This document shows positions 840 to 12,044 of a stretch of DNA of 23,301 nt, piece by piece. Numbering within the stretch: the stretch's first letter is position 1; the number at the start of each line of letters is the position of its first letter. A program made the translations under genes and the position numbers. Origin of the DNA: a virus; IMG/VR virus record IMGVR_UViG_3300036884_000010, positions 1 to 23,301 of that record; one strand, 5' to 3'. The notes beneath the pieces are model-generated. The model made no database searches. It was not told where the DNA came from and saw nothing but the letters and a program-made list of their open reading frames with translations.

Positions 840-923
840 TTAACTGCCGTCACTTACCTATTAACTGCGATTAGTTGCTTTAACTGCCGATAGTTGTTTT
901 AACTGCATTAACTGCATTAACTG
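840..923 (+). repeat. TTAACTG array, six copies
   Basis: TTAACTG begins at 840, 861, 880, 899, 908 and 917, giving steps of 21, 19, 19, 9 and 9 bases, close to one or two DNA turns. All copies are on the plus strand, and five of them are followed by C. The array ends eight bases before a -35-like TTGACA, so it could be an operator or upstream element for that promoter. It is the densest cluster of a heptamer found throughout 840-12765. Confidence 0.85.
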
Positions 924-930
924 CCTTAAA

Positions 931-961
931 TTGACAACGTAGTAATAAAGAGTAGTATAGT
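931..961 (+). promoter_or_regulatory. Sigma70-like promoter for the 1000-onward operon
   Basis: TTGACA at 931-936 is followed after 16 bases by TAGTAT (953-958), or after 19 by TATAGT (956-961). It lies immediately downstream of the six-copy TTAACTG array and about 40 bases ahead of the first gene of a run of plus-strand genes. The -35 is a perfect match; the exact -10 is uncertain. Confidence 0.55.
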
Positions 962-999
962 AATTAAGTTTACTAACTAAAGTATTGAAAGGGGACGTT

Positions 1000-1182
1000 A
1001 TGAAAAACTTATTTGCACAAGTAGCAGAATTAAATAAAAACCTATATCACGCTTGCGATAGTTGCGGAAAAATTACAGAATTAAGACCTTACAACAATAA
1101 TGAATTGACGGATCACAATGATAATTTATGGCACTTGTGTAAAGACTGTTATCCTAAAAGTATTGAAAGGGGGACGTTATGA
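1000..1182 (+). CDS. Zinc-ribbon-like small protein, 60 aa
   Basis: The start is ATG 1000, with GAAAGGGG at good spacing; in-frame codons to 985 lack a better site. Two pairs, CDSC near residue 18 and CKDC near 46, make a four-cysteine metal-binding module typical of small phage zinc ribbons. The last seven residues (SIERGTL) are encoded by the ribosome-binding cassette of the next gene, and the stop overlaps that gene's ATG. The role may be nucleic-acid or protein binding, but the partner is unknown. Confidence 0.75.
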   Translation: MKNLFAQVAELNKNLYHACDSCGKITELRPYNNNELTDHNDNLWHLCKDCYPKSIERGTL

Positions 1183-1184
1183 AA
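1159..1184 (+). repeat. Duplicated RBS/start cassette (copy 2; copy 1 at 981-1005)
   Basis: The stretch from AGTATTGAAAGGGG to ACGTTATGAAA occurs at 981-1005 and again at 1159-1184, with one extra G in the second copy. Each copy places a strong Shine-Dalgarno before an ATGAAA start. The second copy lies inside the coding sequence of the upstream gene. Confidence 0.75.
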
Positions 1185-1319
1185 GTTTATATCACAGCAC
1201 GTGCATTGTACGCAGTAGAAACAAAGGATAGAACTTTAGTCACGTTTAACACTCTGATTAATGCTAATAGCTTTATACGTTCGCAAAATGAAGTTCCTGT
1301 TTATACTTGGTTTAATTAA
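1179..1319 (+). CDS. Hypothetical small protein, 46 aa
   Basis: This frame begins MKVYITARAL at ATG 1179 after AAAGGGGGACGTT, a strong ribosome-binding site, and overlaps the previous stop. It looks like a small alpha/beta fold with hydrophobic strands near residues 2-12 and 19-30. It has no cysteines and no membrane segment. I do not recognise the family. It is supported by the RBS and by close packing between two other genes. Confidence 0.6.
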   Translation: MKVYITARALYAVETKDRTLVTFNTLINANSFIRSQNEVPVYTWFN

Positions 1320-1354
1320 ATAACCATACCTACAAATAAAGGAGATTGCCTACA

Positions 1355-1612
1355 ATGAAAGTTATAATTGAAAATTTAAGACTCTGCCAAGATTGCACGC
1401 TAGCCGCTGTTAATGATGATTATTCAGGTCTTGACTATTACCTGAATGAAGCAGAATCACTTGAACGTCAAAAGGAAATTGTCGCAGGTCTTGAAAGTCT
1501 CGGATTAGGTCTTGTTTGTGGGGATGATACGGACGAATTTTCAACCAGAAAATGCGATTGTTGTGGTACTAGGTTAGCCGGTGAACGTACTTTGTTTAGT
1601 GTTATAGGTTAA
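1355..1612 (+). CDS. Conserved phage protein with CQDC and CDCCG cysteine motifs, 85 aa
   Basis: ATG 1355 follows AAAGGAG; a TTG nine bases upstream is less likely. The product has an N-terminal CQDC (residues 11-14), then an acidic middle with several Asp/Tyr, and a C-terminal KCDCCGTRLAGERT motif near residues 69-80. This layout matches, from memory, a family of unknown function in many phages of Gram-negative and actinobacterial hosts, where an aromatic-polar stretch precedes a CxCCGxxLxGxR signature. The cysteines suggest metal binding. No enzymatic residues are evident. Confidence 0.75.
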   Translation: MKVIIENLRLCQDCTLAAVNDDYSGLDYYLNEAESLERQKEIVAGLESLGLGLVCGDDTDEFSTRKCDCCGTRLAGERTLFSVIG

Positions 1613-1641
1613 TCAATTAAATAACTAAAAGGGGTAATATT

Positions 1642-1827
1642 ATGTTCAGCGTGCATTTAATAAATTCAAACGGTCAAGGCTCATATTTATCGGTCAAGAG
1701 TAAAAGCGAATGGAAAACAAAAAGAACTGCTGTTAAACACGCTAACGATATTAAAGCATGTAAGCACATGCCGTGGAATACAATGACTGTAGAAGTAGAA
1801 AATGAGTTTGGGGAGGTGTTAAAATGA
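1642..1827 (+). CDS. Hypothetical protein, 61 aa
   Basis: The start ATG 1642 has AAAAGGGG at good spacing. The protein is basic in the middle (SEWKTKRTAVKHAND) and acidic at the C-terminus, with a strand-like VHLI start. Its stop overlaps the next ATG (ATGA at 1824-1827), so the pair is probably translated together. The layout (short strand, helix containing KHAND, strand with TMTVEVENE) is compatible with a small alpha/beta fold. I do not know a function. Confidence 0.65.
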   Translation: MFSVHLINSNGQGSYLSVKSKSEWKTKRTAVKHANDIKACKHMPWNTMTVEVENEFGEVLK

Positions 1828-2069
1828 AAATGACAAAAGAGCATTATAAACACATTGAACAAGCCATTGATGCAATACCTGTAAAACTACGTCAATCGCA
1901 TTTTGCAAGTCTCCAGCTTGACAACCGTGTAAAAGATATTGACAAGCGTTTCCGCTGGGATTGTTTTAACTACGCAGGATTGACACAATTCGCTTGTGAT
2001 ATGCTGTATAAATATCTTGACGATACGCACATTGATACGGCTTTAAAATCCATTATGAAAGGCAAATAA
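1824..2069 (+). CDS. Conserved phage protein of unknown function, 81 aa
   Basis: The sequence has the pattern MKMTKEHYKHIEQAI at the N-terminus, VKDIDKRFRWDCF in the middle and YLDDTHIDTALKSI at the C-terminus. I recall this as a widespread small phage family, especially in proteobacterial phages, where the ending YLNDTHIDTAL is nearly invariant. No biochemical role is established that I know of. It is mostly helical and soluble. Start and length fit the family, and it is coupled by ATGA to the gene before. Confidence 0.8.
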   Translation: MKMTKEHYKHIEQAIDAIPVKLRQSHFASLQLDNRVKDIDKRFRWDCFNYAGLTQFACDMLYKYLDDTHIDTALKSIMKGK

Positions 2070-2070
2070 A

Positions 2071-2205
2071 ATGATATTCACTCACGCGCTATATACTCCA
2101 GACGGTCAATTAATCAGCCGTCACAAGTCACTAGAAAAAGCAACACTAGCTGCGAAGTATTGCAAAACGTGTATTCCTACAATTAAACCTATAAAGGAGA
2201 ATTAA
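2071..2205 (+). CDS. Hypothetical small protein, 44 aa
   Basis: This short frame starts one base after the previous stop. The product begins MIFTHALYTPDGQ and contains a Cys-x2-Cys (CKTC) near residues 31-34. The final residues (IKEN) come from the AAAGGAGAAT ribosome-binding site of the following gene, a recurrent economy in this region. There is no strong RBS of its own, so expression would depend on re-initiation. Function unknown. Confidence 0.5.
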   Translation: MIFTHALYTPDGQLISRHKSLEKATLAAKYCKTCIPTIKPIKEN

Positions 2206-2209
2206 GACA

Positions 2210-2485
2210 ATGACAAAATCAGACTTGAAATATCACGTTTCACAAGGTACAGATTCGCATTTCTTTGAACGTAGTTCTATGAAATTCTTTGGTGATACGA
2301 TGGCTAACTACGGTGTACGTTCTACCGTTATAATCTCAAATTATGACAGTGACGGCAACTATCATAGTGAAGGTGTAAAGCGCGAAGTATGGGAATTATA
2401 CCGTAAACGTGCTGTAAAGCATGGATTGAAAAACAATAGCTATTTTGACAAGGTTACATATTCAAGGGTATTTGAGAAATGCTAG
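2210..2485 (+). CDS. Conserved phage hypothetical protein, 91 aa
   Basis: ATG 2210 has AAAGGAG upstream. Features are HFFERSSMKFFGDTMANYGV near residues 17-36, then a beta-rich middle, then WELYRKRAVKHGLKNNSYF near 61-79. I have a general memory of this pattern (a conserved SSMKFFGDTM segment) in Gram-negative phage and plasmid proteins with no known role. It is soluble with one terminal cysteine. Its 3' end overlaps a microprotein gene by seven bases. Confidence 0.7.
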   Translation: MTKSDLKYHVSQGTDSHFFERSSMKFFGDTMANYGVRSTVIISNYDSDGNYHSEGVKREVWELYRKRAVKHGLKNNSYFDKVTYSRVFEKC

Positions 2486-2544
2486 TAACTGGCGGTATTC
2501 TCTGTCTATTGTGGGCATTATATGACATGTCACAAGGTAATTAA
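2479..2544 (+). CDS. Membrane microprotein, 21 aa (copy A of duplicated module)
   Basis: A 21-residue frame starts inside the end of the preceding gene. It is a single hydrophobic helix ending LLWALYDMSQGN. A second frame at 3369 ends LLWVIYDILQGN, so the two share sequence while the genes around them do not. Both stops sit inside a TTAACTG heptamer, and both are followed by near-identical leaders. Conservation of protein and leader together argues that it is translated. It could be a leader peptide controlling the next gene or a small membrane effector. Confidence 0.55.
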   Translation: MLVTGGILCLLWALYDMSQGN

Positions 2545-2580
2545 CTGCCGTGTATTGCCTTAACTGTTAACACTTAACTA
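2541..2580 (+). repeat. TTAACTG leader array (19/14 spacing)
   Basis: TTAACTG at 2541 and 2560, then TTAACTA at 2574, just before the AAAAGGAG of the gene at 2600. The TAA of the upstream microprotein is bases 2542-2544, inside the first copy. The spacing is the same as in the leader at 3434-3473. Confidence 0.8.
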
Positions 2581-2599
2581 TTAAAAGGAGATTTTATTT

Positions 2600-2887
2600 A
2601 TGAGATGTATTGGCTTGTTTCAAGCGGTAAAACTGCTAAAAGAAAACAATGTAATTTTTGACAATGCGTATGAAAACAAGTTTTTCAATAAAAATTATTT
2701 TGGTGATATTATTTCATATTCAAAAGGTATTCACATTTATTTTAACAATGGTTTTTCTGAAAATATTGCATACTATACACCGGAGACGCAATGCCTGATA
2801 ATTTTTGGCACTGCTAGGGTAGATGGAACACCGCAAGAAAACAGAATGAATGTTGATATCAATTTTACAAGCGAGGTTATATTATGA
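2600..2887 (+). CDS. Hypothetical protein, 95 aa
   Basis: ATG 2600 follows AAAAGGAG in a TTAACTG leader. The protein is rich in Asn, Phe and Tyr with alternating strand-like segments (IHIYFNNGFSENIAYYT near 45-61), suggesting a small beta-rich fold. I do not recognise a family. The stop overlaps the next ATG (ATGA at 2884), so the two are probably co-translated. AT-rich codon use drives much of the Asn/Ile/Lys content. No signal peptide or membrane segment is seen. Confidence 0.65.
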   Translation: MRCIGLFQAVKLLKENNVIFDNAYENKFFNKNYFGDIISYSKGIHIYFNNGFSENIAYYTPETQCLIIFGTARVDGTPQENRMNVDINFTSEVIL

Positions 2888-3375
2888 GACAATCAATGGA
2901 AGAAATAAAGGAATTAGCTACAACAAACGGCAACAATGATGCCATTTACAAAATAGCTACGGATGCCATTGAATCTGATAATAAAGAGCGCAACAAGATA
3001 CGTTTTGACCGTATTAATAACGACGTTAACGGCAACCCACGTTATGTAGTACATTTCCTACAATGCCGTCCTAACGATCAATATAGTTATGGTGATACTT
3101 GCAAGCTAATGAATAAAATAGGCGGTAGGGAGTATCATAATAAGTCATACGGTGGCGGTATTGTGTTTCAATCTTATTCATTAACTGAACTTGAAAACAG
3201 TATTAATGAATTAAAACACGTCATTAACAACGAAAAGGAAATTAACTACAATCTGTTTAAAGGCATTCAATCCGTTATTAAAATTAATGACGTTATAACA
3301 GGTAATGACGGTATTAAATATCGTATTACAGCCAAAACACAAGGTAAGCTTTTTGCGGTAACTGTATCATGTTAA
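2884..3375 (+). CDS. Conserved phage protein with DVNGNPRYVVHF motif, 163 aa
   Basis: The central segment reads RINNDVNGNPRYVVHFLQ (about residues 43-60), followed by a helix with KLMNKIGGREYHNKSYGGG and a strand IVFQSYSL. I recall this block in many phage and plasmid hypothetical proteins of roughly 80-110 residues, with unknown function. This copy carries an N-terminal helix and a C-terminal extension (about 112-163) ending in a strand-rich segment, so it is longer than usual. It starts by ATGA overlap and its 3' end overlaps the second microprotein frame. Confidence 0.75.
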   Translation: MRQSMEEIKELATTNGNNDAIYKIATDAIESDNKERNKIRFDRINNDVNGNPRYVVHFLQCRPNDQYSYGDTCKLMNKIGGREYHNKSYGGGIVFQSYSLTELENSINELKHVINNEKEINYNLFKGIQSVIKINDVITGNDGIKYRITAKTQGKLFAVTVSC

Positions 3376-3437
3376 TGCAAATAGCAGGAGCAGCATGTTT
3401 ATTGTGGGTAATATATGACATATTGCAAGGTAATTAA
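3369..3437 (+). CDS. Membrane microprotein, 22 aa (copy B of duplicated module)
   Basis: This frame starts at ATG 3369 (a second ATG lies at 3375) in overlap with the preceding stop. It encodes a single hydrophobic helix ending LLWVIYDILQGN, matching the 2479 microprotein at 10 of the last 12-13 positions or by conservative change. The stop TAA is inside TTAACTG (3434-3440). The pairing of microprotein and leader at both places is the best evidence that it is a real gene. Confidence 0.55.
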   Translation: MLMQIAGAACLLWVIYDILQGN

Positions 3438-3473
3438 CTGTCTTGTATTGCCTTAACTGTTGACCGTTAACTA
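3434..3473 (+). repeat. TTAACTG leader array (19/14 spacing)
   Basis: TTAACTG at 3434 and 3453 and TTAACTA at 3467, followed by GAAAAGGAG before the ATG at 3494. The layout equals that at 2541-2580, and the bases between the first two copies (TCTTGTATTGCC here, CCGTGTATTGCC there) are also nearly the same. Confidence 0.8.
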
Positions 3474-3493
3474 TTGAAAAGGAGTGCCAAACC

Positions 3494-3691
3494 ATGAAAT
3501 TTGACGCTAAAATTGTACTTATTGACGGCAAAGAATATAAACTTGGTTCTTTATGTTCAGGAACTATAAACAGCAAAACCGGCTTTAATTATTATGTTTT
3601 AAACGATAAAGGCCAAAATTTTAGAATTGTTAACGCTTACCCAAAAGGAACAAAAGTTTTTACAAGTGGTGAACATTTAGAATTTAAATAG
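3494..3691 (+). CDS. Hypothetical small beta-rich protein, 65 aa
   Basis: ATG 3494 lies after AAAAGGAG. The product has short alternating strands with turns at DGKE, NSKTG and NDKG, resembling a small SH3- or OB-like barrel, and has a single cysteine. It contains no catalytic-looking motif. Twenty-six bases downstream of the SD is the gene start; sixteen bases after its stop another well-placed RBS gene begins. The family is not recognised. Confidence 0.65.
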   Translation: MKFDAKIVLIDGKEYKLGSLCSGTINSKTGFNYYVLNDKGQNFRIVNAYPKGTKVFTSGEHLEFK

Positions 3692-3707
3692 AAAGGAGTT
3701 ACAAACC

Positions 3708-3926
3708 ATGAAAATTATATATCAGAAAGAAAGCGAAACTATTCGGCAGATGCCAGAAAATTATCTAATTGCACATAAATCAAATGGTTCTTGGAAAAGT
3801 GAACCTGACTTGGCAGCAAATCTGGAAATTTGTGTAAAGGTTTATAGAACTATAAACCATTCACATGCTAATAAATACATTGCTACAGGTGAGCAAATTA
3901 TAGAAATGGCGTTAAAACTTCAATGA
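3708..3926 (+). CDS. Hypothetical protein, 72 aa
   Basis: ATG 3708 follows GAAAGGAG. The protein is soluble and mixed alpha/beta: an N-terminal strand (MKIIYQ), a polar middle, and a C-terminal helix (GEQIIEMALKLQ). It ends in an ATGA overlap with the gene at 3923, so the two are likely coupled. I do not recognise it and see no metal-binding or catalytic signature. Confidence 0.65.
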   Translation: MKIIYQKESETIRQMPENYLIAHKSNGSWKSEPDLAANLEICVKVYRTINHSHANKYIATGEQIIEMALKLQ

Positions 3927-4069
3927 TTAAAATTACATTCATTCGATACAATAACAAAGATTTTCAAGGTATTGTTTTTGCTGAAACTGAAAAGCAAGCG
4001 GAAATAATTATTGACGGATTAAAGCAATTAAAACATATATCAAATATTAAAAGTGAGGTTATATCGTGA
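3923..4069 (+). CDS. Hypothetical small protein, 48 aa
   Basis: This starts in ATGA overlap with the previous stop and ends in GTGA overlap with the next start. The product MIKITFIRYNNKDFQG then TEKQAEIIIDGLKQL reads as strand-turn-strand-helix. Being flanked on both sides by overlapping start/stop pairs supports translation in one coupled series of three genes (3708, 3923, 4066). Function unknown. Confidence 0.6.
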   Translation: MIKITFIRYNNKDFQGIVFAETEKQAEIIIDGLKQLKHISNIKSEVIS

Positions 4070-4203
4070 AACGTCAAAATATTTCAGGTTTTGAATTTAA
4101 GCTTTTCGGTTATACCGTTGAAATTGTAACTGTATATCATTTTCCGGTATGTATAGCGGTATGGAAATGTGCAAAACTTGTAAAACGCTATGAAATAGCA
4201 TAA
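4066..4203 (+). CDS. Hypothetical small protein, 45 aa, GTG start
   Basis: The GTG at 4066 overlaps the preceding stop (GTGA) and has AGTGAGG about eight bases upstream. The product is short, with a hydrophobic stretch (about residues 17-33) that could be one weak membrane segment, and a basic tail. It is the last gene before a GC-richer, hairpin-forming gap, so it may end the coupled series that starts at 3708. Not recognised. Confidence 0.5.
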   Translation: MKRQNISGFEFKLFGYTVEIVTVYHFPVCIAVWKCAKLVKRYEIA

Positions 4204-4216
4204 AACCGGCTTCACA

Positions 4217-4296
4217 GAATGTCCTAGGAACGCCAAACGACAAGCGGCCAAGGGGATAGCATAGGGTAAAACCTTGACCGCTTAGAGACGATATTC
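4217..4296 (+). ncRNA. Candidate structured RNA element (unknown class)
   Basis: AAGCGGCCAAGG (4242-4253) pairs with CCTTGACCGCTT (4272-4283), a 12-base stem with one mismatch and an 18-base loop. An outer helix is possible between GAATGTC (4217-4223) and GAC plus ATTC (4287-4289, 4293-4296) across a 3-base bulge. The patch is visibly richer in G and C than its surroundings, carries no reading frame of note, and lies between the 4203 stop and an RBS at 4312. It could be a leader element of the 4332 gene, a small RNA or a processing site. No known riboswitch consensus is recognised. Confidence 0.4.
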
Positions 4297-4331
4297 AGAA
4301 TTTCATATATTTAGGAAAGGGGATGTTATTT

Positions 4332-4427
4332 ATGAGAAATTCAAAAAGAGCATGGAGAAACGATTGCAAAAACTTGAATGCTATTAACATTGAAGAAACT
4401 TTTATTAAACTGGCTGTTAACTGTTAA
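4332..4427 (+). CDS. Hypothetical basic microprotein, 31 aa
   Basis: ATG 4332 follows TAGGAAAGGGG, one of the stronger ribosome-binding sites in the window, although the spacing to the ATG is long. The 31-residue product is basic at the N-terminus (MRNSKRAWRND). Its last codons (gtt aac tgt taa) are made from a TTAACTG heptamer. The candidate RNA structure just upstream may control it. It might be a leader peptide rather than an effector. Confidence 0.5.
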   Translation: MRNSKRAWRNDCKNLNAINIEETFIKLAVNC

Positions 4428-4484
4428 GCATTGCTACTTAACTGCCTTGACTTGCTACTTAACTGCCACTAATTACATTAACTG
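4417..4484 (+). repeat. TTAACTG array, four copies (21/21/19 spacing)
   Basis: Copies begin at 4417, 4438, 4459 and 4478. The last is followed directly by AAAGGGG, the ribosome-binding site of the gene at 4498. Two of the intervals contain GCTACTTAACTGCC, a local duplication. Confidence 0.85.
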
Positions 4485-4497
4485 AAAGGGGTTTACA

Positions 4498-5046
4498 ATG
4501 AGAACTGAAACGACAACAAGAAACCTTTATACTTTCGATGAACTGTCAGAAACGGCTAAAGAGAATGCTATAAATCAACTATCAAATATAAACGTAGATT
4601 ATAAATGGTGGGAAAGTGAATATGAGGACGCCGAACAAGTTGGAATAACTATCACAAGTTTTGACTTGGATAGAAATCGACACGCTTGTGCTGATATTCC
4701 AAATTGCCAGGAAACAGCCGAATTGATTTTAAGCAATCACGGTGAAGAATGCGAAACGTATAAAACAGCTAAAACTTTTCTTGACCAGTATTTGCCGATT
4801 AAAGAAAAACGCGATAAATGCGACGATATTTATTCACGTAACAAATACAGAAAATGTTTGTCAGATACACTTGACAGTTTAAAATCTGACTTGGAAACCT
4901 TGACAGAAGATTTTAAACAATCAATAACTGAAGATTATTCTATTATGCTTCAGCATCAATACGAATATCTCTGTTCAAGTGAAGCAATCGAAGAAACCAT
5001 AAAAGCTAATGAATACGAATTTGCTGAAGATGGAGAACTTGCTTAA
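4498..5046 (+). CDS. Conserved phage hypothetical protein, 182 aa (YTFDELSETAKE family)
   Basis: The N-terminus (about residues 10-31) reads LYTFDELSETAKENAINQL, followed by NVDYKWWESEYEDAEQVGI. I recall this start from many phage hypothetical proteins of about 150-200 residues in Gram-negative hosts, without assigned function. The rest is helical and strongly acidic, with predicted coiled-coil character around 108-150 (charged heptads). No catalytic motif is visible. Its TAA stop is embedded in TTAACTG at 5043, and a TTAACTG leader precedes it too. Confidence 0.75.
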   Translation: MRTETTTRNLYTFDELSETAKENAINQLSNINVDYKWWESEYEDAEQVGITITSFDLDRNRHACADIPNCQETAELILSNHGEECETYKTAKTFLDQYLPIKEKRDKCDDIYSRNKYRKCLSDTLDSLKSDLETLTEDFKQSITEDYSIMLQHQYEYLCSSEAIEETIKANEYEFAEDGELA

Positions 5047-5068
5047 CTGTCTTGTGTTACCTTAACTG
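5043..5068 (+). repeat. TTAACTG pair (19-base spacing)
   Basis: Copies begin at 5043 and 5062. The first contains the stop codon of the preceding gene (GCT TAA CTG). The 29 bases from 5043 differ at only a few positions from the leader at 3434, and an AAGAAAGGA ribosome-binding site follows. Confidence 0.8.
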
Positions 5069-5098
5069 TCACTTATTACCTACAAAGAAAGGAATGAT

Positions 5099-5470
5099 AT
5101 GTACATCTGCGAAGAATGCCATAATAAACGTCAAAACCGAAAAGCTTTAGAAAGTCAACCGCTACAATTCATTTACGGTATAAACGAAACATTTACACAT
5201 TCGTGCCCTGAATGCGGTACACGTAAGAAGCAAAAGGCTTTTCAATATCTAAATGCTTATGAGTTAGTTATGGAATTAGAAGAGCTAAAAGAGAAACATG
5301 AAAAACTTGTTGTCCCTGATAGTTTCCCCGTTCAAGGGTATCATTCAGCACAAGACCTGTTTGACCGGTCGAAAGTGTTTCCCGCAATTCTGAATGATGC
5401 TGAAGCAATGCAAAATGCCTTGCAATATGCTGCTGAAATAGAATCAATACTTGAAGAGGTGCAACCATGA
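5099..5470 (+). CDS. Zinc-finger-containing hypothetical protein, 123 aa
   Basis: Two pairs, CEEC (residues 4-7) and CPEC (36-39), form a four-cysteine zinc ribbon at the N-terminus. A helical remainder (about 50-123) with many Glu, Leu and Ala includes a charged stretch MELEELKEKHEKL. ATG 5099 follows AAGAAAGGA; the stop overlaps the next start (ATGA at 5467). The layout, ribbon then helical tail, suits a DNA- or protein-binding adaptor, but I cannot assign a partner. Confidence 0.7.
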   Translation: MYICEECHNKRQNRKALESQPLQFIYGINETFTHSCPECGTRKKQKAFQYLNAYELVMELEELKEKHEKLVVPDSFPVQGYHSAQDLFDRSKVFPAILNDAEAMQNALQYAAEIESILEEVQP

Positions 5471-5787
5471 GCAAACTATCTAAGCTTGATACAACAATCC
5501 AAGAAAAAACAAAAGTAATATTTCGCAAATTTCCAGATGGTGAAATAATAGCTCTATTCCCTGAATTGCCAGGAACTAACAGTGTAACGAATTGTCTTAA
5601 CTACATGCACAACGGCCAGCATGGAAGCGGTAAAGCTACTTGCGAAGGTACAAAGCCAGTTGATAAAGACTGGAATGGAGCATTAAAGCGGGAGTTAACT
5701 GCAATCGGTTACAACTTAACTGTTGTTACTCGCTTTTCATATCAAATGGATCAAAAGAGAATTGCTTTAATACGTGGTACTAAATAA
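5467..5787 (+). CDS. Conserved phage hypothetical protein, 106 aa
   Basis: The core reads [20 protein letters not shown] (residues 17-36), then [13 protein letters not shown] near 43-55, and a C-terminal segment with a helix and a strand pair. I recall similar proteins in many bacterial and phage genomes (a motif of the type FPDGxVIALFP followed by C..Y.H.GQHG), annotated only as hypothetical. The His/Gly cluster is conserved in memory but no activity is known. TTAACTG occurs twice inside the coding sequence, at 5695 and 5716, 21 bases apart. Confidence 0.75.
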
Positions 5788-5815
5788 AACTCAAAACCAA
5801 AAGGAGAATTACAAA

Positions 5816-6421
5816 ATGAATATCAAAAATCGTTATACAAATGAAATTATTGCAGAAGGTGAAACGGTCAAACAAATAGCAATTAATAATAAAACTAACC
5901 TTCGCGGCGCTGACCTTCGCGGCGCTAACCTTTACGGCGCTAACCTTTACGGCGCTGACCTTTACGGCGCTGACCTTTACGGCGCTGACCTTCGCGGCGC
6001 TAACCTTTACGGCGCTGACCTTCGCGGCGCTGACCTTTACGGCGCTGACCTTTACGGCGCTGACCTTCGCGGCGCTGACCTTTACGGCGCTGACCTTTAC
6101 GGCGCTAACCTTCGCGGCGCTAACCTTTACGGCGCTGACCTTCGCGGCGCTAACCTTCGCGGCGCTAACCTTTACGGCGCTGACCTTCGCGGCGCTAAAT
6201 ATGGCAACAACGAACTTCTTATTAAATACTTAACTATCGGGCCTATTGGTTCGAGAAATGATTATCTACAAATATTCATAACTGACAAACAAAAACTTGT
6301 TAAAACTGGCTGTTTTTCAGGATCAATTGAAGAGCTTAAACGAGCTGTTAACAAAACTCATTCAGGCAATGACCACGCAAAACATTATAACTTAGCAATT
6401 GCTTTAATTGAGGTTATGTAG
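5816..6421 (+). CDS. Pentapeptide-repeat protein, 201 aa
   Basis: The start is ATG 5816 with AAAAGGAG upstream. A 27-residue leader with a [13 protein letters not shown] segment is followed by 20 uninterrupted (D/N)L(R/Y)GA units (about residues 28-127), which should fold as a right-handed quadrilateral beta-helix of about five coils. The C-terminal domain (about 130-201) includes [14 protein letters not shown] and KTGCFSG, a segment I have seen attached to other phage pentapeptide proteins. Related rods (Qnr, MfpA) mimic DNA and bind gyrase; whether this one does is unproven. The repeats are nearly identical in DNA. Confidence 0.9.
5897..6196 (+). repeat. 15-bp tandem repeat, 20 units
   Basis: Each unit is (G/A)ACCTT(CGC/TAC)GGCGCT. 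Leu, Gly and Ala use a single codon throughout (CTT, GGC, GCT), and only two places vary: GAC/AAC and CGC/TAC. Such uniformity shows recent expansion or homogenisation, and the array is far more GC-rich than the DNA around it. Confidence 0.95.
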
Positions 6422-6422
6422 T

Positions 6423-6447
6423 TTAACTGTCTTAACTATCTTAACTG
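6423..6447 (+). repeat. TTAACTG/TTAACTA array at left flank of TnpB element
   Basis: TTAACTG at 6423, TTAACTA at 6432 and TTAACTG at 6441, each nine bases apart. It lies between the stop at 6421 and the left end of the TnpB element, so it is the likely insertion target. Confidence 0.8.
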
Positions 6448-6497
6448 ACTTTTATATTTTTCTTGCTTTTTAGATAAAGGCGCGATATTCTCAAAAC

Positions 6498-7634
6498 ATG
6501 ATTAAGAAAAGTTACAGATATAGGATATATCCAAATCAAGCACAAATCGTTTTGCTAAACAAGCATTTCGGAGCTACCCGTATGATTTACAACTGGGGTT
6601 TGTCTGAAAAAACGCAATCTTATCAAGAAACCGGAACCTCGTTAACACGCTATCAACTTCAAGAAAGATTGCCTGAAATGAAACAAACTGACAAACCTTG
6701 GTTAGGAGAAATTAATTCTCAATCACTTCAAGCTTCCTTGCTTAATCTTGACCGAGCATTTTTAAACTTTTTTAAACATAACAGCAAATTTCCCAAATTT
6801 AAAAAGAAAAATCACAGACAATCGTTCCAAGTACCTCAAGGTGGTAAAATAGATTTTAAAACTGAAAAGTTATTTATACCAAAGTTTATTAGGGGTATTA
6901 AGTGCAAAGTTTCTAGAAAATTTGAAGGTGTTGCTAAAACATTCACAGTTTGCAAAACAACAACGGAAAAGTATTTTGTTTCTGTTATTGTGGAAACTCT
7001 TGACACAATCCAGAATAAAAAACCAATTTCGTTTGAAACAACCATTGGAATAGACGTAGGTATAAAGGATTTTTGCACACTATCAACAGGTGAGAAAGTT
7101 GAAAATCCCCGCTATCTGCGGAGCGAACTAGCTCGGTTGAAGATACTTCAGCGTAGAGCAAGTAAAAAGAAAAAAGGAAGTGCAAACCGAAAGAAAGCTG
7201 TAATGAAGGTCGCGTTGTTGCATGAAAAGATAGCAAACCAAAGAAAAGACTTCCTACACAAATTGACAGACAGGTTGACTAGCGAAAACCAAGTTAACAG
7301 CCTAGCCGTGGAAGATTTGAATATTGCAGGAATGTTGAAGAACCGCCGCCTTGCCCAGGCAATCTCGGATGTTTCTTGGAGCGAATTTTACCGACAACTT
7401 GAGTACAAGGCAGAGTGGAACGGCGTAAACCTTCTTAAGATAGGTAGGTTTGAACCGAGTAGTAAAATGTGTTCTTGTGGTGTAATAAACAGTCAATTAA
7501 AACTAAATGATCGTAAATGGACTTGTTCATCTTGCGGCCAAACTCACGACCGAGATATTCTAGCAGCAAATAACATCAAACGGTTTGCTTTAGCGAACGA
7601 TAATTTGAAATATCATCTGCGGTGCGCAGAGTAG
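6498..7634 (+). CDS. tnpB: RNA-guided endonuclease TnpB, 378 aa
   Basis: This is a full-length TnpB. The N-terminal helix-turn-helix-like region begins YRYRIYPNQAQ (residues 6-16); the RuvC active site is present with D186 in GIDVGIKDF, E272 in AVEDLNI and D353 in HDRDILAANNI; the zinc ribbon has C325, C327, C343 and C346. All catalytic residues are intact, so it should be active as an RNA-guided DNA nuclease using an omega RNA made from its 3' end. The start has no good ribosome-binding site, typical for the family. The length is normal. It is an insertion in a phage operon, with its guide expected from the right flank. Confidence 0.95.
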   Translation: MIKKSYRYRIYPNQAQIVLLNKHFGATRMIYNWGLSEKTQSYQETGTSLTRYQLQERLPEMKQTDKPWLGEINSQSLQASLLNLDRAFLNFFKHNSKFPKFKKKNHRQSFQVPQGGKIDFKTEKLFIPKFIRGIKCKVSRKFEGVAKTFTVCKTTTEKYFVSVIVETLDTIQNKKPISFETTIGIDVGIKDFCTLSTGEKVENPRYLRSELARLKILQRRASKKKKGSANRKKAVMKVALLHEKIANQRKDFLHKLTDRLTSENQVNSLAVEDLNIAGMLKNRRLAQAISDVSWSEFYRQLEYKAEWNGVNLLKIGRFEPSSKMCSCGVINSQLKLNDRKWTCSSCGQTHDRDILAANNIKRFALANDNLKYHLRCAE

Positions 7635-7696
7635 AGCTTCTGGAGGTGCGCTGTTGCAATGGCGGCCTGCGAAGGAAGAAGCGTTGAAATTGACGC
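7624..7696 (+). ncRNA. Candidate omega RNA scaffold / right end of TnpB element
   Basis: The region overlapping and following the tnpB stop is GC-richer than its surroundings and can fold: GCGCA (7624-7628) with TGCGC (7647-7651), and GCGT (7681-7684) with ACGC (7693-7696). In this family the guide RNA scaffold spans the end of tnpB and the right end, and the guide is the DNA just beyond. The 5' limit and exact right end are not determined. Confidence 0.5.
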
Positions 7697-7740
7697 AGTA
7701 CAACTGACTTCATTTACCTACAATAAAGGAGATTAAAGCT

Positions 7741-7872
7741 ATGAAAGTATTTCACGAATTGACTGTTGACGAAATGAAACTAGAAGGTTTCGGAGTTAAT
7801 GACATTACGCCGGGTCAACTTGAATCTGATAAATTGTTTGTAGATTATCAGTGTCAAGGCGGTGCAAAATGA
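7741..7872 (+). CDS. Hypothetical small acidic protein, 43 aa
   Basis: ATG 7741 follows AAAGGAG in the leader that I infer was split by the TnpB element. The acidic product begins MKVFHELTVDEMKLEG and ends near a CQGG. Its stop overlaps the next start (ATGA at 7869). It is the first gene of a short series running to 8863. Not recognised. Confidence 0.6.
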   Translation: MKVFHELTVDEMKLEGFGVNDITPGQLESDKLFVDYQCQGGAK

Positions 7873-8102
7873 CACTATGCAAACGAGTTAAAACAGCTTC
7901 AGGTAACAAGCGTCATTATACATTTCCTAATGGTGAATTAGTTGTATATGTAGGTACTAAGAAAGCTTGTCTATTCCTGATTGACGGTTTAACCTACTTA
8001 ACTAAGGCTATTGACAGAAAACTAGCAGCCAATGCTTTAAAACAGCTAAAACGGGAATGTAAAGGTGTTACTAGTGATGAAGTAATACAAGGGGAGGTTT
8101 GA
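7869..8102 (+). CDS. Hypothetical basic protein, 77 aa
   Basis: ATG 7869 sits in ATGA overlap with the previous stop, with AAGGCGG upstream; an in-frame GTG at 7851 is less likely because it would lie deep in the previous gene. The product is basic in its middle, with strand-like LVVYVGTKKACLFLIDG (about 22-38) and a helix KAIDRKLAANALKQLKREC. It has no recognised domain. A TTAACTA variant lies inside at about 7999. Confidence 0.65.
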   Translation: MTLCKRVKTASGNKRHYTFPNGELVVYVGTKKACLFLIDGLTYLTKAIDRKLAANALKQLKRECKGVTSDEVIQGEV

Positions 8103-8103
8103 A

Positions 8104-8226
8104 ATGTTAGTTCTTGATTTTGGATTTGTAGCTAACAAAGAATCGGGTAAGTGTGTTGCTATTAACGTCGGTTTAAAGTATTATTTAATATGGCTTGACG
8201 AATGGCAAAATCAAGGCGGTGAATAA
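8104..8226 (+). CDS. Hypothetical small protein, 40 aa
   Basis: This frame starts one base after the preceding stop, with a strong GGGGAGG about seven bases upstream. The product begins MLVLDFGFVANKE and contains a hydrophobic strand pair and a C-terminal WLDEWQNQGG. It may be a small beta-hairpin protein. The good RBS and tight packing support it; I cannot name a family. Confidence 0.6.
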   Translation: MLVLDFGFVANKESGKCVAINVGLKYYLIWLDEWQNQGGE

Positions 8227-8227
8227 C

Positions 8228-8278
8228 ATGCTAATCCTAATAATCATTCTGCTAGTACTTTTGTTTATATTACATTAA
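8228..8278 (+). CDS. Membrane microprotein, 16 aa
   Basis: A 16-residue frame, MLILIIILLVLLFILH, starts two bases after the preceding stop. It is one uninterrupted transmembrane-length hydrophobic helix. The stop TAA lies inside TTAACTG (8275), the same arrangement as the microproteins at 2479 and 3369. AAGGCGG upstream can serve as RBS. Short size means chance occurrence cannot be excluded, but the composition and position are suggestive. Confidence 0.45.
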   Translation: MLILIIILLVLLFILH

Positions 8279-8295
8279 CTGTCAACAGGTGAAAC

Positions 8296-8652
8296 GTGAA
8301 ACAAGCAATGCAAAATAAACTAATTGAAGTAAAGCAACAAGCGGCTATTAACTGGCCTTGCTTGACTAAGCGGTATCAATTCAAAAAGGCAAAGCTAATA
8401 TTTGCCGATGAGCTTGAATCCTGGGGTTTGTGTTGGCTTGCTTCAAATACAATTGAAATTAACATGCAGTGTGCTATAGCTGATCCTGAAAGAACATTAA
8501 CTGAAGTTGTCGGGCATGAACTTTGCCATATTTTAACGCCGCTGCTTTATCCTGGCGTTGGCTTTACTTTTGAAGATGCTCATGGTAAAGAATGGCAAGC
8601 TATTATGAAAGCTATGAGTCTTGCTATTGATCCGATTGACTTGATTGTTTAA
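8296..8652 (+). CDS. SprT-like zinc metalloprotease domain protein, 118 aa
   Basis: Residues 74-78 are HELCH, the HExxH zinc-protease motif, with a third candidate ligand H96 in DAHGKEW, as in SprT/Spartan-type proteins. The N-terminal part has the usual strand pair (KAKLIFADEL, then NTIEINMQCA) ahead of the catalytic helix. In cells Spartan degrades DNA-protein crosslinks; phage copies are small and their targets unknown. The start is GTG 8296 after CAGGTG; ATG 8308 is an alternative. The stop codon is inside a TTAACTG at 8649. The protein lacks an obvious C-terminal zinc ribbon. Confidence 0.8.
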   Translation: MKQAMQNKLIEVKQQAAINWPCLTKRYQFKKAKLIFADELESWGLCWLASNTIEINMQCAIADPERTLTEVVGHELCHILTPLLYPGVGFTFEDAHGKEWQAIMKAMSLAIDPIDLIV

Positions 8653-8682
8653 CTGCAACCGCTTAACTATCTTGCTTAACTG
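8649..8682 (+). repeat. TTAACTG array (14/13 spacing)
   Basis: TTAACTG at 8649 (holding the stop of the SprT-like gene), TTAACTA at 8663 and TTAACTG at 8676, directly followed by GAGAGGA, the ribosome-binding site of the gene at 8696. Confidence 0.8.
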
Positions 8683-8695
8683 AGAGGAATTACTT

Positions 8696-8863
8696 ATGAA
8701 AAGATTATCAGGTTTTGCAATACTCGTAATTTTAATATTTGCAATAGGTTTGGTTATGGCGTTCGCTTTAAACTTTAACTGGATTGCTTTATTTTGTATA
8801 ATTGGAGCAGCTTGTTTAATTACAGCTTTGCTCTATTTTGCTTTGTACTTAATACATTCATAA
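8696..8863 (+). CDS. Small membrane protein, 55 aa, two TM segments
   Basis: ATG 8696 follows GAGAGGA. Two hydrophobic segments (about 5-24 and 29-50) are separated by a short Asn/Phe/Trp turn, giving a two-pass membrane protein with a basic N-terminus (MKRLSG). Its last six bases overlap the end of the convergent minus-strand primase gene. A TTAACTG copy lies inside at 8775. The function is unknown; holin-like or host-membrane roles are possible. Confidence 0.65.
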   Translation: MKRLSGFAILVILIFAIGLVMAFALNFNWIALFCIIGAACLITALLYFALYLIHS

Positions 8864-11239
8864 CTGCATTCCAGAAATAACATAAAGTTTTGCCCTGTCT
8901 GTGAGATTTTTTGATTTTTTGTCAAGGGGTGATAACTCAACTATCTCCCCACAATCTGCAAGACTTTTAATAGCAATACCAATTGCAGGAACCGGCCCCA
9001 AACGATCATTCTTAAAACTAGCACGTTGTCTACAACAAGCTGTTATGTAGGAATGAGGGATAATCTTTAACTGAAACAGAATCTCCGAACATCCGGCATA
9101 CTTTTTAACATCATCCCATGAACCGGAAACGTATTTCTTAATCACTTTCTTAATGTCTGTTGCTTGATCGTTCTGAACATTGTTAACACCAATTTCACCA
9201 GATTCAAAACGGCCTAGCAAGTTTAAAACATCCTGGGTAATTAACTGCAATGCCCAGGTTGCACATTCAACATTGATAACCGGCTGAATGCAGTTAACTC
9301 CGACTGCTAGTAAGGCGGCAAGCTTCAGAACCTTCATATGGGCGCGAGTCCATAATTCAGCACTAACTGAATCACCTGTGTTAACTTTATGGTCGCACCA
9401 AACATCAAATTCTTTAAATAACTTTTGGGCAGCTTCGTCTGTTCCTACATTAATAACATTATCACCATTGTTTAACTGCAACGCATAGGCGCATAAAGCT
9501 GAAAACCGATCTGTTAACTGTTGAGAAGGGGTTGCGTTGTGGTGATTATCATTTGTAGGCACTCTGTCACCTTTATATTCAATAATAGTACAACGTGGTA
9601 GTAAACCTTCATTTATCATATCTTTGGAAAGTAGTTCATAAAACTTTTCAGGGGTTGCTTCACCTAATACGGAAAATGCAGGCGCTCTTGTAACAGCAGT
9701 ATTTTTATCTTTGTCTGAATAGATTAAACTTCCTAAAACGTCGTCGTGGCCTGACTGATTGTATAAGTCAAGCATTGCAATTCTAACGCCTTGCTGAACT
9801 GGATTACGACTATCATTTGACATCTTTTTTAACGTATCTGCAAACTCACCCATGATTGAAACAAAGCTTTGAGAAGACTTTGAAATGTACTTCATAAGTG
9901 CTTCAGGTGATGCAATTTTAGCTGGCCCCATAAACGTATGAGCTTTTTCAACTGACTTAACTGTCGCTCCTAGCAATTTATTTATACAACGTCGCATTGC
10001 CTCCTTTCCTCGACCTGTTTTAGCAATTAAGAAAGTATAAGTATTAAGGCCGGTGCCGCTAACGTTGTAAGCCCGCCCACAAACACCTGACATCAAACCT
10101 AAAGCTCCAGCAATGGCTATTTCCTTAACTGGCCGTGGTGCTGCGGCGTAAATAAATTGTGCGATATCGCCACAAAGTCCAGGTGGCAAGCTATATTCAA
10201 AGTTCTGTATATTTGAATCTTTAGATATATGACTATACTTATGTTTCTTAACTGCTGCTGGTTGCTGAGGCTGCACAGGAGCATCAACGGGTATAACTGG
10301 CGGCAAGGGGCTTAACTGCACCGGCTGAACGCTCTCAGCCTTAACTGCGGCGAGCTGAAGCTGTAGATTTGCGTGGAGAGCGTCGAGATTGAGGGGCGGG
10401 TGCATTTTGTCAAAACTTTTGTCAAGCATACCCCATTCAGGATGCTCAAAATAGTCTTCCCGTTGGGCTTTCTTGCGTTGTCCGATGACACTTGAACGAA
10501 AGATACGTTTAATCTGTTCTCTGTTCTGTGTGTAAAAACTAATGAGGTTTACTAAAGCTTGATCGGCCTGATTGCAGCTTTCTTCCTTATGTGCTTCTTC
10601 AGGAAAGTATTGCTGCCAGCGACCCTCGAAAATGTCGATAAATTTCGTGCCGTTAGAGGCGCTTGACGCTTGACTTAAAATTTCATAATCCGTAAAAACT
10701 TCAGGTGTGTCAAGACGCGGCCCAATTTCGTTTTGAGGCTTCGCTTCCATCTCACTCCATAATAAATCGGCGAGTTCTTGATAATCTTTAATTGGTAAAT
10801 CCCTACAACAATTGCCCGTAAAAGTCATGTAATGACCCGCTGTATACATCTCAACCTTGGCGCGATTGCGATTTGTTGGAACCTTGGCACGTATCCAAAT
10901 ATGGCACCCCAATCCAGAAGGGCTAATTTCTGAATACGACTCAAAAGCCGCAAAAATACCTTGCTGCTTCTGCCGTGTGGCTTCGTCAGGAGCATCGTCA
11001 AGGTCAATGCACAGGTAAGGGTCTGATGGCGATATGACAAAGCCTATGCCTGAACAATACTGAGAAACGGCAACAGCTTCTTCAAACGATCCCCAATGAA
11101 CAGGATTTGTTGGGCTTGCTTTATATCCATTGTGGGGATTGTACGGCATTTTAGTGACTTTGCCGGTTTCGTCAATTTCTACTTTATAAACTATCCATTG
11201 GCGCAAGGCTTTTAGTTCGGCTGGTATTTTTGAGTACAC
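8858..11239 (-). CDS. Primase-polymerase fused to a DUF3987-type ATPase/helicase-like domain, 793 aa
   Basis: The N-terminal domain (about 1-170) matches PrimPol-type primases: RQWIVYKVE, KMPYNPHNGYKAS, GIGFVISPSDPYLCIDLDD with the acidic catalytic pair, SEISPSGLGCHIWI and GHYMTFTG. The C-terminal part (from about 345) has the DUF3987 pattern LPPGLCGDIAQFIY, a Walker A-like AKTGRGKEA near 402-412, and IMGEFADTL. Such proteins prime and probably help load or unwind at phage origins. The start is GTG 11239. A Pro/Gln-rich linker (about 300-335) joins the domains. Nine TTAACTG copies lie on the opposite strand across this gene. It is transcribed with the methyltransferase, against the flanking genes. 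Confidence 0.9.
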   Translation of the reverse strand: MYSKIPAELKALRQWIVYKVEIDETGKVTKMPYNPHNGYKASPTNPVHWGSFEEAVAVSQYCSGIGFVISPSDPYLCIDLDDAPDEATRQKQQGIFAAFESYSEISPSGLGCHIWIRAKVPTNRNRAKVEMYTAGHYMTFTGNCCRDLPIKDYQELADLLWSEMEAKPQNEIGPRLDTPEVFTDYEILSQASSASNGTKFIDIFEGRWQQYFPEEAHKEESCNQADQALVNLISFYTQNREQIKRIFRSSVIGQRKKAQREDYFEHPEWGMLDKSFDKMHPPLNLDALHANLQLQLAAVKAESVQPVQLSPLPPVIPVDAPVQPQQPAAVKKHKYSHISKDSNIQNFEYSLPPGLCGDIAQFIYAAAPRPVKEIAIAGALGLMSGVCGRAYNVSGTGLNTYTFLIAKTGRGKEAMRRCINKLLGATVKSVEKAHTFMGPAKIASPEALMKYISKSSQSFVSIMGEFADTLKKMSNDSRNPVQQGVRIAMLDLYNQSGHDDVLGSLIYSDKDKNTAVTRAPAFSVLGEATPEKFYELLSKDMINEGLLPRCTIIEYKGDRVPTNDNHHNATPSQQLTDRFSALCAYALQLNNGDNVINVGTDEAAQKLFKEFDVWCDHKVNTGDSVSAELWTRAHMKVLKLAALLAVGVNCIQPVINVECATWALQLITQDVLNLLGRFESGEIGVNNVQNDQATDIKKVIKKYVSGSWDDVKKYAGCSEILFQLKIIPHSYITACCRQRASFKNDRLGPVPAIGIAIKSLADCGEIVELSPLDKKSKNLTDRAKLYVISGMQL

Positions 11240-11275: not shown

Positions 11276-12044
11276 TTAAACGATGTCGTTAGCTATCAGA
11301 ACTTCGTGATTCTGAATGCGAGCAACTGCTTTATCGGCATATTCTTGAAGCTGTTCAATACATATCCATTTTCGGTTTGTATTTTCACAGGCAATTGCTG
11401 TAGTACCGCTACCGGCACAGTTATCAAGTACAAGTTCACCTTCATTTGTATATGTTTTGATTAGGTATTCAAACAGAGCTGCTGGTTTTTGGGTTGGGTG
11501 AATAGAACCTTTACGAACTTTATCAAAAGTTATAATTGTAGTTGGGTTCTTTTCATCATACGTCTTTTTAAAGCCTTCAACTTTGTAATTATCAAGTGTT
11601 GTCGATTCGGCGTTTAACTTCTTTTGACCACCTGATTTTATAGGTTTGTCGCGTTTAATCATTTGCGCGTTATATAATACTTTGTTTTTTGAAAATACGT
11701 TCACGTCTTCATGTTGGCGCATAGGTTGAAATCTAGCATAGCTCATTCCACTAGGAATTACCTTATCCCAAATCCATTGATACCTAAACAATTTAATATT
11801 AGACGTTATCATTACAGACGTAAATGGTTCGCTAGAAGTAAGCGCCGTTATCTTTAATTATACGTTCGTATTGTAACCACAACGCTTCAAAAGGAATTAT
11901 ACTATCCCACTTACAAGCTGTAGTTCCATAAGGTAAGTCGCAAAGTATCATGTCAACTACACCATCAGGTATTTGCTTCATAACTTCAAGGCAATCACCT
12001 AAGTAAAATCTGCCGTTCTTTATGTCTTGGTATGGATGTGTCAT
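11276..12044 (-). pseudogene. DNA adenine/cytosine-N4 methyltransferase, beta-class, broken by a frameshift
   Basis: The first frame (12044-11832, 70 codons) has the start MTHPYQDIKNGRFYLGD and catalytic motif DLPYGTT; it stops at TAG after NGAYF. The rest lies one base on: SEPFTSVMITSNIKLFRYQW, then PMRQHEDVNVF, HPTQKPAALFEYLIK and the SAM-binding LDNCAGSGTTAIACE. Motif order (DPPY-type before FxGxG-type) is beta-class. In homologues as I remember them five residues stand between NGA and SEPF; here only seven bases do, which fits an 8-base deletion. An ATG at 11812 could restart the second part. It may be dead, split, or a sequencing error. Confidence 0.75.

What the first reader, a model, noticed from the sequence alone, without database searches (positions are those of the whole stretch)
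6423..7740. TnpB element inserted into a TTAACTG leader
The element sits between a TTAACTG/TTAACTA array and the leader of the 7741 gene. Cutting it out at AACTGACTT (6443 and 7702) gives TTAACTG..CATTTACCTACAATAAAGGAG, nearly the leader seen at 5062. The motif is therefore older than the insertion and may be its target: TnpB target-adjacent motifs are short T/A-rich sequences, and TTAAC or TTTAAC would fit. If so, the phage carries dozens of candidate target-adjacent motifs for this nuclease, raising self-cutting or homing-like behaviour.
Basis: inference. Interest (0 to 1): 0.7.

Follow-up and report, generated by a model that had tools for sequence, protein, structure and literature searches.

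The report
Solo TnpB nuclease in phage leader
A phage carries one apparently intact copy of a well-known RNA-guided DNA-cutting gene (tnpB) inserted into a repeated leader sequence of its own, which is an ordinary kind of mobile element; the proposed link between the leader repeat and the enzyme's cutting signal remains possible but unproven, and no sign of self-cutting was found.

Summary
A complete tnpB (6498-7634; RuvC residues and zinc finger intact) lies between a TTAACTG/TTAACTA array (6423-6447) and the leader of the next gene, bounded by an exact 9-bp direct repeat, AACTGACTT (6443-6451, 7702-7710). Joining the flanks restores a phage leader module.

TTAACTG is a phage-lineage motif, independent of the element: a related phage (G001) has the same leaders and no TnpB, while the closest TnpB (L002, 83% identical, unrelated phage) has no TTAACTG.

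The target-adjacent motif (TAM) idea is only partly plausible. Cousin elements insert after TTTAA (13 of 13 copies) or TTTAT (3 of 3), so CTTAA|C here would be a variant. But L002's left flank is AATAA, not TTAAC; the left end cannot be fixed; and outside the heptamer TTAAC is at chance frequency.

Self-cutting is not supported: at 126 TTAAC sites at most 6 leading guide bases match, and no second site in the window exceeds 16/20.

The 9-bp repeat needs no target-site duplication: 12% of leader pairs share as much.

Best reading: an IS200/IS605-type solo TnpB whose guide, read from the leader, matches only the empty allele, giving retention or homing-like spread. New member of a known kind.

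The parts
6423..6449 (+). TTAACTG/TTAACTA/TTAACTG array, 9-bp units: phage leader, left flank of the element
   Evidence: sequence; heptamer enriched; same motif in leaders of relative phage G001/L082
6443..6451 (+). left copy of the direct repeat AACTGACTT
   Evidence: exact match
6453..6497 (+). left part of the element: AT-rich stretch plus promoter-like TTGCTT (6463-6468), 17 nt, TATTCT (6486-6491), conserved with L002; true left end uncertain (6445-6453)
   Evidence: alignment with L002; promoter reading by eye, not called by the consensus scan; no significant hairpin in the window
6498..7634 (+). tnpB, 378 aa, RuvC D186/E272/D353 and CxC..CxxC zinc finger intact
   Evidence: Pfam, NCBIfam NF040570 over its cut-off, PDB ISDra2 TnpB 7e-73, alignment
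7615..7701 (+). right end / presumed guide-RNA scaffold, strongly conserved with L002; terminal hairpin GCGTTGAAATTGACGC at 7681-7696 preceded by AGAAG
   Evidence: alignment; hairpin read from the two sequences; whole-segment folding not better than shuffles
7702..7710 (+). right copy of the direct repeat AACTGACTT
   Evidence: exact match
7702..7724 (+). presumed guide-encoding flank, starting at 7702, 7704 or 7705 depending on the true right end
   Evidence: end of homology with L002; right ends of cousin elements; no second match in the window
7711..7740 (+). remainder of the leader of the 7742 gene, with ribosome-binding site
   Evidence: sequence; same layout as leader 5062-5098

Best explanation
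This is a solo IS200/IS605-type TnpB element of about 1.25 kb that landed in an intergenic leader of a phage lineage which uses TTAACTG repeats upstream of its genes. Shown: an intact TnpB gene; a right-end/guide-scaffold segment conserved in an unrelated phage at another site; no TnpA in this 23-kb fragment; leader sequence on both sides; the leader motif in a relative lacking tnpB. Inferred: the transcript through tnpB and the right end is processed to a guide RNA whose last 16-20 bases are copied from the right flank ((AAC)TGACTTCATTTACCTAC). TnpB then cuts only the empty leader allele in sister or co-infecting phage genomes, and repair from the occupied copy keeps or spreads the element. 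The occupied allele is spared because AGTACAA(C) replaces the sequence that precedes the target in the empty site. TTAACTG serves the phage, not the element; the TTAA within it may have served as target-adjacent motif.
For: TnpB domains and catalytic residues. Close relative L002 (83% aa) in an unrelated phage, sharing DNA from about 6453 to 7703 and nothing outside. No Y1 transposase in the record, with positive controls ringing. Related phage G001 has the same leaders without tnpB. The joined flanks fit the leader module. The guide is unique in the window. Published mechanism: the guide comes from the sequence following the right end, the TAM from the site before the left end, and the empty donor site is cut (PMC8612924); TnpB acts as a gene drive in plasmids (PMC11870625).
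Against: No empty site of this leader was found, so the insertion is reconstructed, not observed. The left end lacks a recognisable IS605-type left hairpin. The guide-scaffold segment does not fold better than shuffles. Only one close relative exists in the collections searched. No expression or cleavage data.
Confidence: 0.72

Rival explanations
1. One reading: TTAAC(TG) itself is the insertion target and TnpB target-adjacent motif, so the element is adapted to this phage's repeats, with dozens of potential sites raising self-cutting.
For: Cousin families use TTTAA (13 of 13 Oceanirhabdus copies) or TTTAT (3 of 3 methanogen copies) at the left flank. A characterised TnpB accepts NTTAA. CTTAA|C precedes one possible left boundary.
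Against: L002 has no TTAAC; its flank under the same phasing is AATAA. TTAAC outside the heptamer is at chance, 85 against about 82. At 126 TTAAC sites the longest contiguous guide match is 6. The boundary is ambiguous by up to 9 bp inside a TTAAC-rich array.
Confidence: 0.3
2. The element inserts with a short target-site duplication (9 bp here, 7 bp in L002), that is, by a staggered break or a transposase other than the IS605 single-strand enzyme.
For: Exact repeats AACTGACTT in the window and AATAAAT in L002 start at the same place, directly after CAGYAC. Chance of the L002 repeat is about 0.01-0.02.
Against: In the window 138 of 1190 leader pairs share 9 or more bases, so the array alone can explain the repeat. 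In L002, 5 bases separate the repeat from the conserved left part. IS200/IS605 elements insert without target duplication (PMC8612924).
Confidence: 0.15
3. Not a mobile element now but a resident phage gene (regulatory or counter-competitor TnpB) carried vertically, its ends decayed.
For: No tnpA and no IS605-like left hairpin. Phage-encoded TldR proteins of the TnpB kind are known regulators (PMC13418256, listed).
Against: All three RuvC residues and the zinc finger are intact, unlike nuclease-dead TldR (general knowledge). The same unit sits at unrelated loci in two phages. Related phages lack it.
Confidence: 0.12

Closest known systems
IS200/IS605-family TnpB (ISDra2 TnpB, PDB 8bf8; NCBIfam NF040570 and NF038281)
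   Same: Domains, catalytic residues, zinc finger, tnpB followed by a right-end hairpin and a flank-derived guide
   Different: No tnpA; left end lacks a recognisable IS605 hairpin; 392 bits against NF038281, under its 425 cut-off
Methanosarcinales TnpB elements (L085, L117, L118, about 50-53% aa)
   Same: Nearest multi-copy relatives in the tree; right-end hairpin with short tail
   Different: Left flank TTTAT, a long left end with its own hairpin, right end TTCAC
IMG/VR locus L002 (3300020045_005239)
   Same: Same subfamily: 83% identical TnpB, same left part and right end, also between two genes
   Different: Unrelated phage, no TTAACTG, 7-bp flanking repeat AATAAAT
Sulfolobus islandicus TnpB (TTTAA/NTTAA TAM, PMC11043419; solo copies TTTAT, PMC10640517)
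   Same: T-rich motif ending TAA/TAT; the sequence after the right end is the guide
   Different: Right end TTCAC, against AGTAC(AA(C)) here

Membership tests
TnpB RNA-guided nucleases | OrfB/TnpB domains (HTH_OrfB, OrfB_IS605, TNB zinc finger) | tested here: met
   Pfam PF12323, PF01385, PF07282; NF040570 336.9 bits against cut-off 100
TnpB RNA-guided nucleases | Catalytic RuvC D-E-D residues | tested here: met
   D186, E272, D353 line up with the active-site motifs
TnpB RNA-guided nucleases | Guide-RNA scaffold at the 3' end of tnpB running into the flank | tested here: inconclusive
   Strong conservation with L002 up to the right end, but no folding excess and no RNA data
TnpB RNA-guided nucleases | Guided cleavage next to a target-adjacent motif | not testable with these tools
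   No biochemical data; motif TTAA(C) undecided
IS200/IS605 elements | TnpA (Y1) in cis, or trans-mobilisable ends with left and right hairpins | tested here: inconclusive
   No Y1_Tnp in the record; right hairpin present; window left part without significant hairpin; the record is a fragment
IS200/IS605 elements | Insertion 3' of a fixed short T-rich target, without target duplication | tested here: inconclusive
   Cousins TTTAA/TTTAT; window CTTAA or other, L002 AATAA or other; 9- and 7-bp repeats unexplained or by chance
Homing-type (gene-drive) nuclease | Cuts the empty allele and not the occupied one | tested here: inconclusive
   Guide is unique in the window and the occupied allele lacks TTAA(C) before it; no empty allele in hand and no activity data

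The most novel reading that the evidence does not exclude
A TnpA-independent TnpB subfamily (window plus L002) that inserts with a 7-9 bp target duplication, possibly at breaks of its own making, and whose guide is taken from a phage-specific regulatory repeat, so that it homes between sibling phages through their shared leaders.
Probability: 0.07. Interest if true: 0.75.

Novelty: new member of a known kind. Interest (0 to 1): 0.3.

Why it matters
It is a clean case of a solo TnpB unit in a phage whose guide would match a lineage-specific leader, so retention or homing between sibling phages could be tested directly.

Tried and rejected
Empty-site search through neighbouring genes 4498, 8296 and 8858 and through the L002 neighbour gene: no usable relatives. 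More copies of the subfamily in phages, plasmids, GTDB contigs and 398 genomes of one phylum: none closer than about 53% except L002. 'Nothing found' is weak there: collections were sampled, the exact-pattern scans are short-sighted, and one search used a strict cut-off. A 9-bp target-site duplication as the main reading was set aside, because leader arrays give the same signal in 12% of leader pairs. Self-targeting was rejected: no second guide match. Rfam found no RNA family at the locus. Failed searches were input errors and carry no evidence.

Full report
Observation. The region was read directly. The array TTAACTGTC-TTAACTATC-TTAACTGAC occupies 6423-6449, tnpB 6498-7634, and the exact direct repeat AACTGACTT lies at 6443-6451 and 7702-7710. 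TTAACTG occurs 41 times against 5 +/- 2 in shuffles, 37 times on + and 4 on -. Many copies form modules TTAACTG-N7-TTRC (12 of 37, against 1.3% of positions). It does so whether one or two copies of the 9-mer are kept, because the flank is itself a 9-bp array.

What the element is. The protein has all TnpB domains, matches NCBI's guided_TnpB model over its cut-off and ISDra2 TnpB at 7e-73. D186, E272, D353 and the zinc-finger cysteines are present. The nearest relative by far is L002 (83%), in an unrelated phage; the next are at about 50-53%, mainly methanogen elements. In a maximum-likelihood tree the window and L002 form a fully supported pair next to the methanogen elements (weaker support, 83/70). 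No Y1 transposase lies in the record, with positive controls; the record is a fragment, so one elsewhere in the phage is not excluded.

Ends. Window and L002 DNA are alike from TATATTTTTCTTG (6453) to CAGTACAA (7703). The right end has the usual layout: AGAAG, a hairpin largely kept between the two through changes at paired bases (one pair is broken in L002), and a short tail. Cousin tails end TTCAC, or AGCAC/AGCCC in most Paracaedibacteraceae copies, so the right boundary lies between 7701 and 7705. The left side is only a promoter-like segment before the ATG. The consensus scan did not call it and it has no significant hairpin, so the left boundary (6445-6453) stays open.

Direct repeats. 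L002 has its own flanking repeat, AATAAAT, directly after the right end. By shuffling or by random segment pairs its chance is 0.01-0.02. The window's 9-mer looks rarer by that test (0.0004-0.002), but among leader modules of this phage 138 of 1190 pairs share 9 or more bases. A target-site duplication is therefore possible and not established.

Is TTAAC the target-adjacent motif? In favour: all 13 Oceanirhabdus copies inspected follow TTTAA, three methanogen copies follow TTTAT, published work shows TTTAA with tolerance at the first base, and in the window CTTAA precedes a possible boundary. Against: L002 shows AATAA under the same phasing and otherwise shares no left motif; the boundary is ambiguous by up to 9 bp inside a TTAAC-rich array; and TTAAC outside TTAACTG occurs at chance.

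Is the motif older than the insertion? Probably, as far as relatives show. G001, related through its helicase (64%) and primase (58%), has 18 TTAACTG on one strand, nearly all in leaders, and no tnpB. It is too distant to provide the exact empty site.

Self-cutting. With three possible phasings of the guide, no second site in the window or in the first 10 kb of G001 matches more than 9 leading bases or 16 of 20. At the 126 TTAAC sites the best contiguous seed is 6, reached at two sites, one of them the element's own left flank. A published seed of about 10 bases in a relative makes cutting at these leaders unlikely. Only 23 kb of the phage is in hand.

Mechanism. The most economical model is the published one: the guide records the insertion site, the nuclease cuts element-free copies and repair restores the element. 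In a phage this would amount to retention during replication and homing into co-infecting siblings. This step is inferred, not shown.

Noticed in passing
window 840-10347: TTAACTG is strongly strand-biased (37 + / 4 -) and also occurs 9 times inside the antisense primase gene (9067-10347), though nearly absent from 10.4 to 23.3 kb. Spacing of 19-21 bp, TTAACTG-N7-TTRC, looks iteron- or operator-like; its function is unknown.
   Followed up: partly
L121 139-217 (record G005): Three TTAACTG sites lie in the same middle part of the primase gene in a second relative, so the motif may also be a DNA-level element within that gene.
   Followed up: no
window 5816-6421: Pentapeptide-repeat protein encoded by near-identical 15-bp DNA units.
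   Followed up: no
window 11276-12044 (-): An N6/N4 DNA methylase appears split into two ORFs (11276-11812 carries the Pfam match; the 11832-12044 piece has methylase-like sequence by eye but no Pfam match).
   Followed up: no
L009, L010, L011, L020: A separate viral TnpB family with right end GATTCCAA; L010, and perhaps others, has a divergent small ribbon-helix-helix-like ORF directly upstream (read by eye).
   Followed up: no
L002 882-1550: A serine recombinase (Resolvase domain) lies about 0.7 kb upstream of the L002 tnpB.
   Followed up: no
L042-L046, L068, L088, L092, L094, L098, L101, L105, L108 (Oceanirhabdus sp. W0125-5): About 16 near-full-length tnpB copies, plus fragments, in one genome; all 13 inspected copies have a TTTAA left flank and, where read, a TTCAC right end.
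   Followed up: yes
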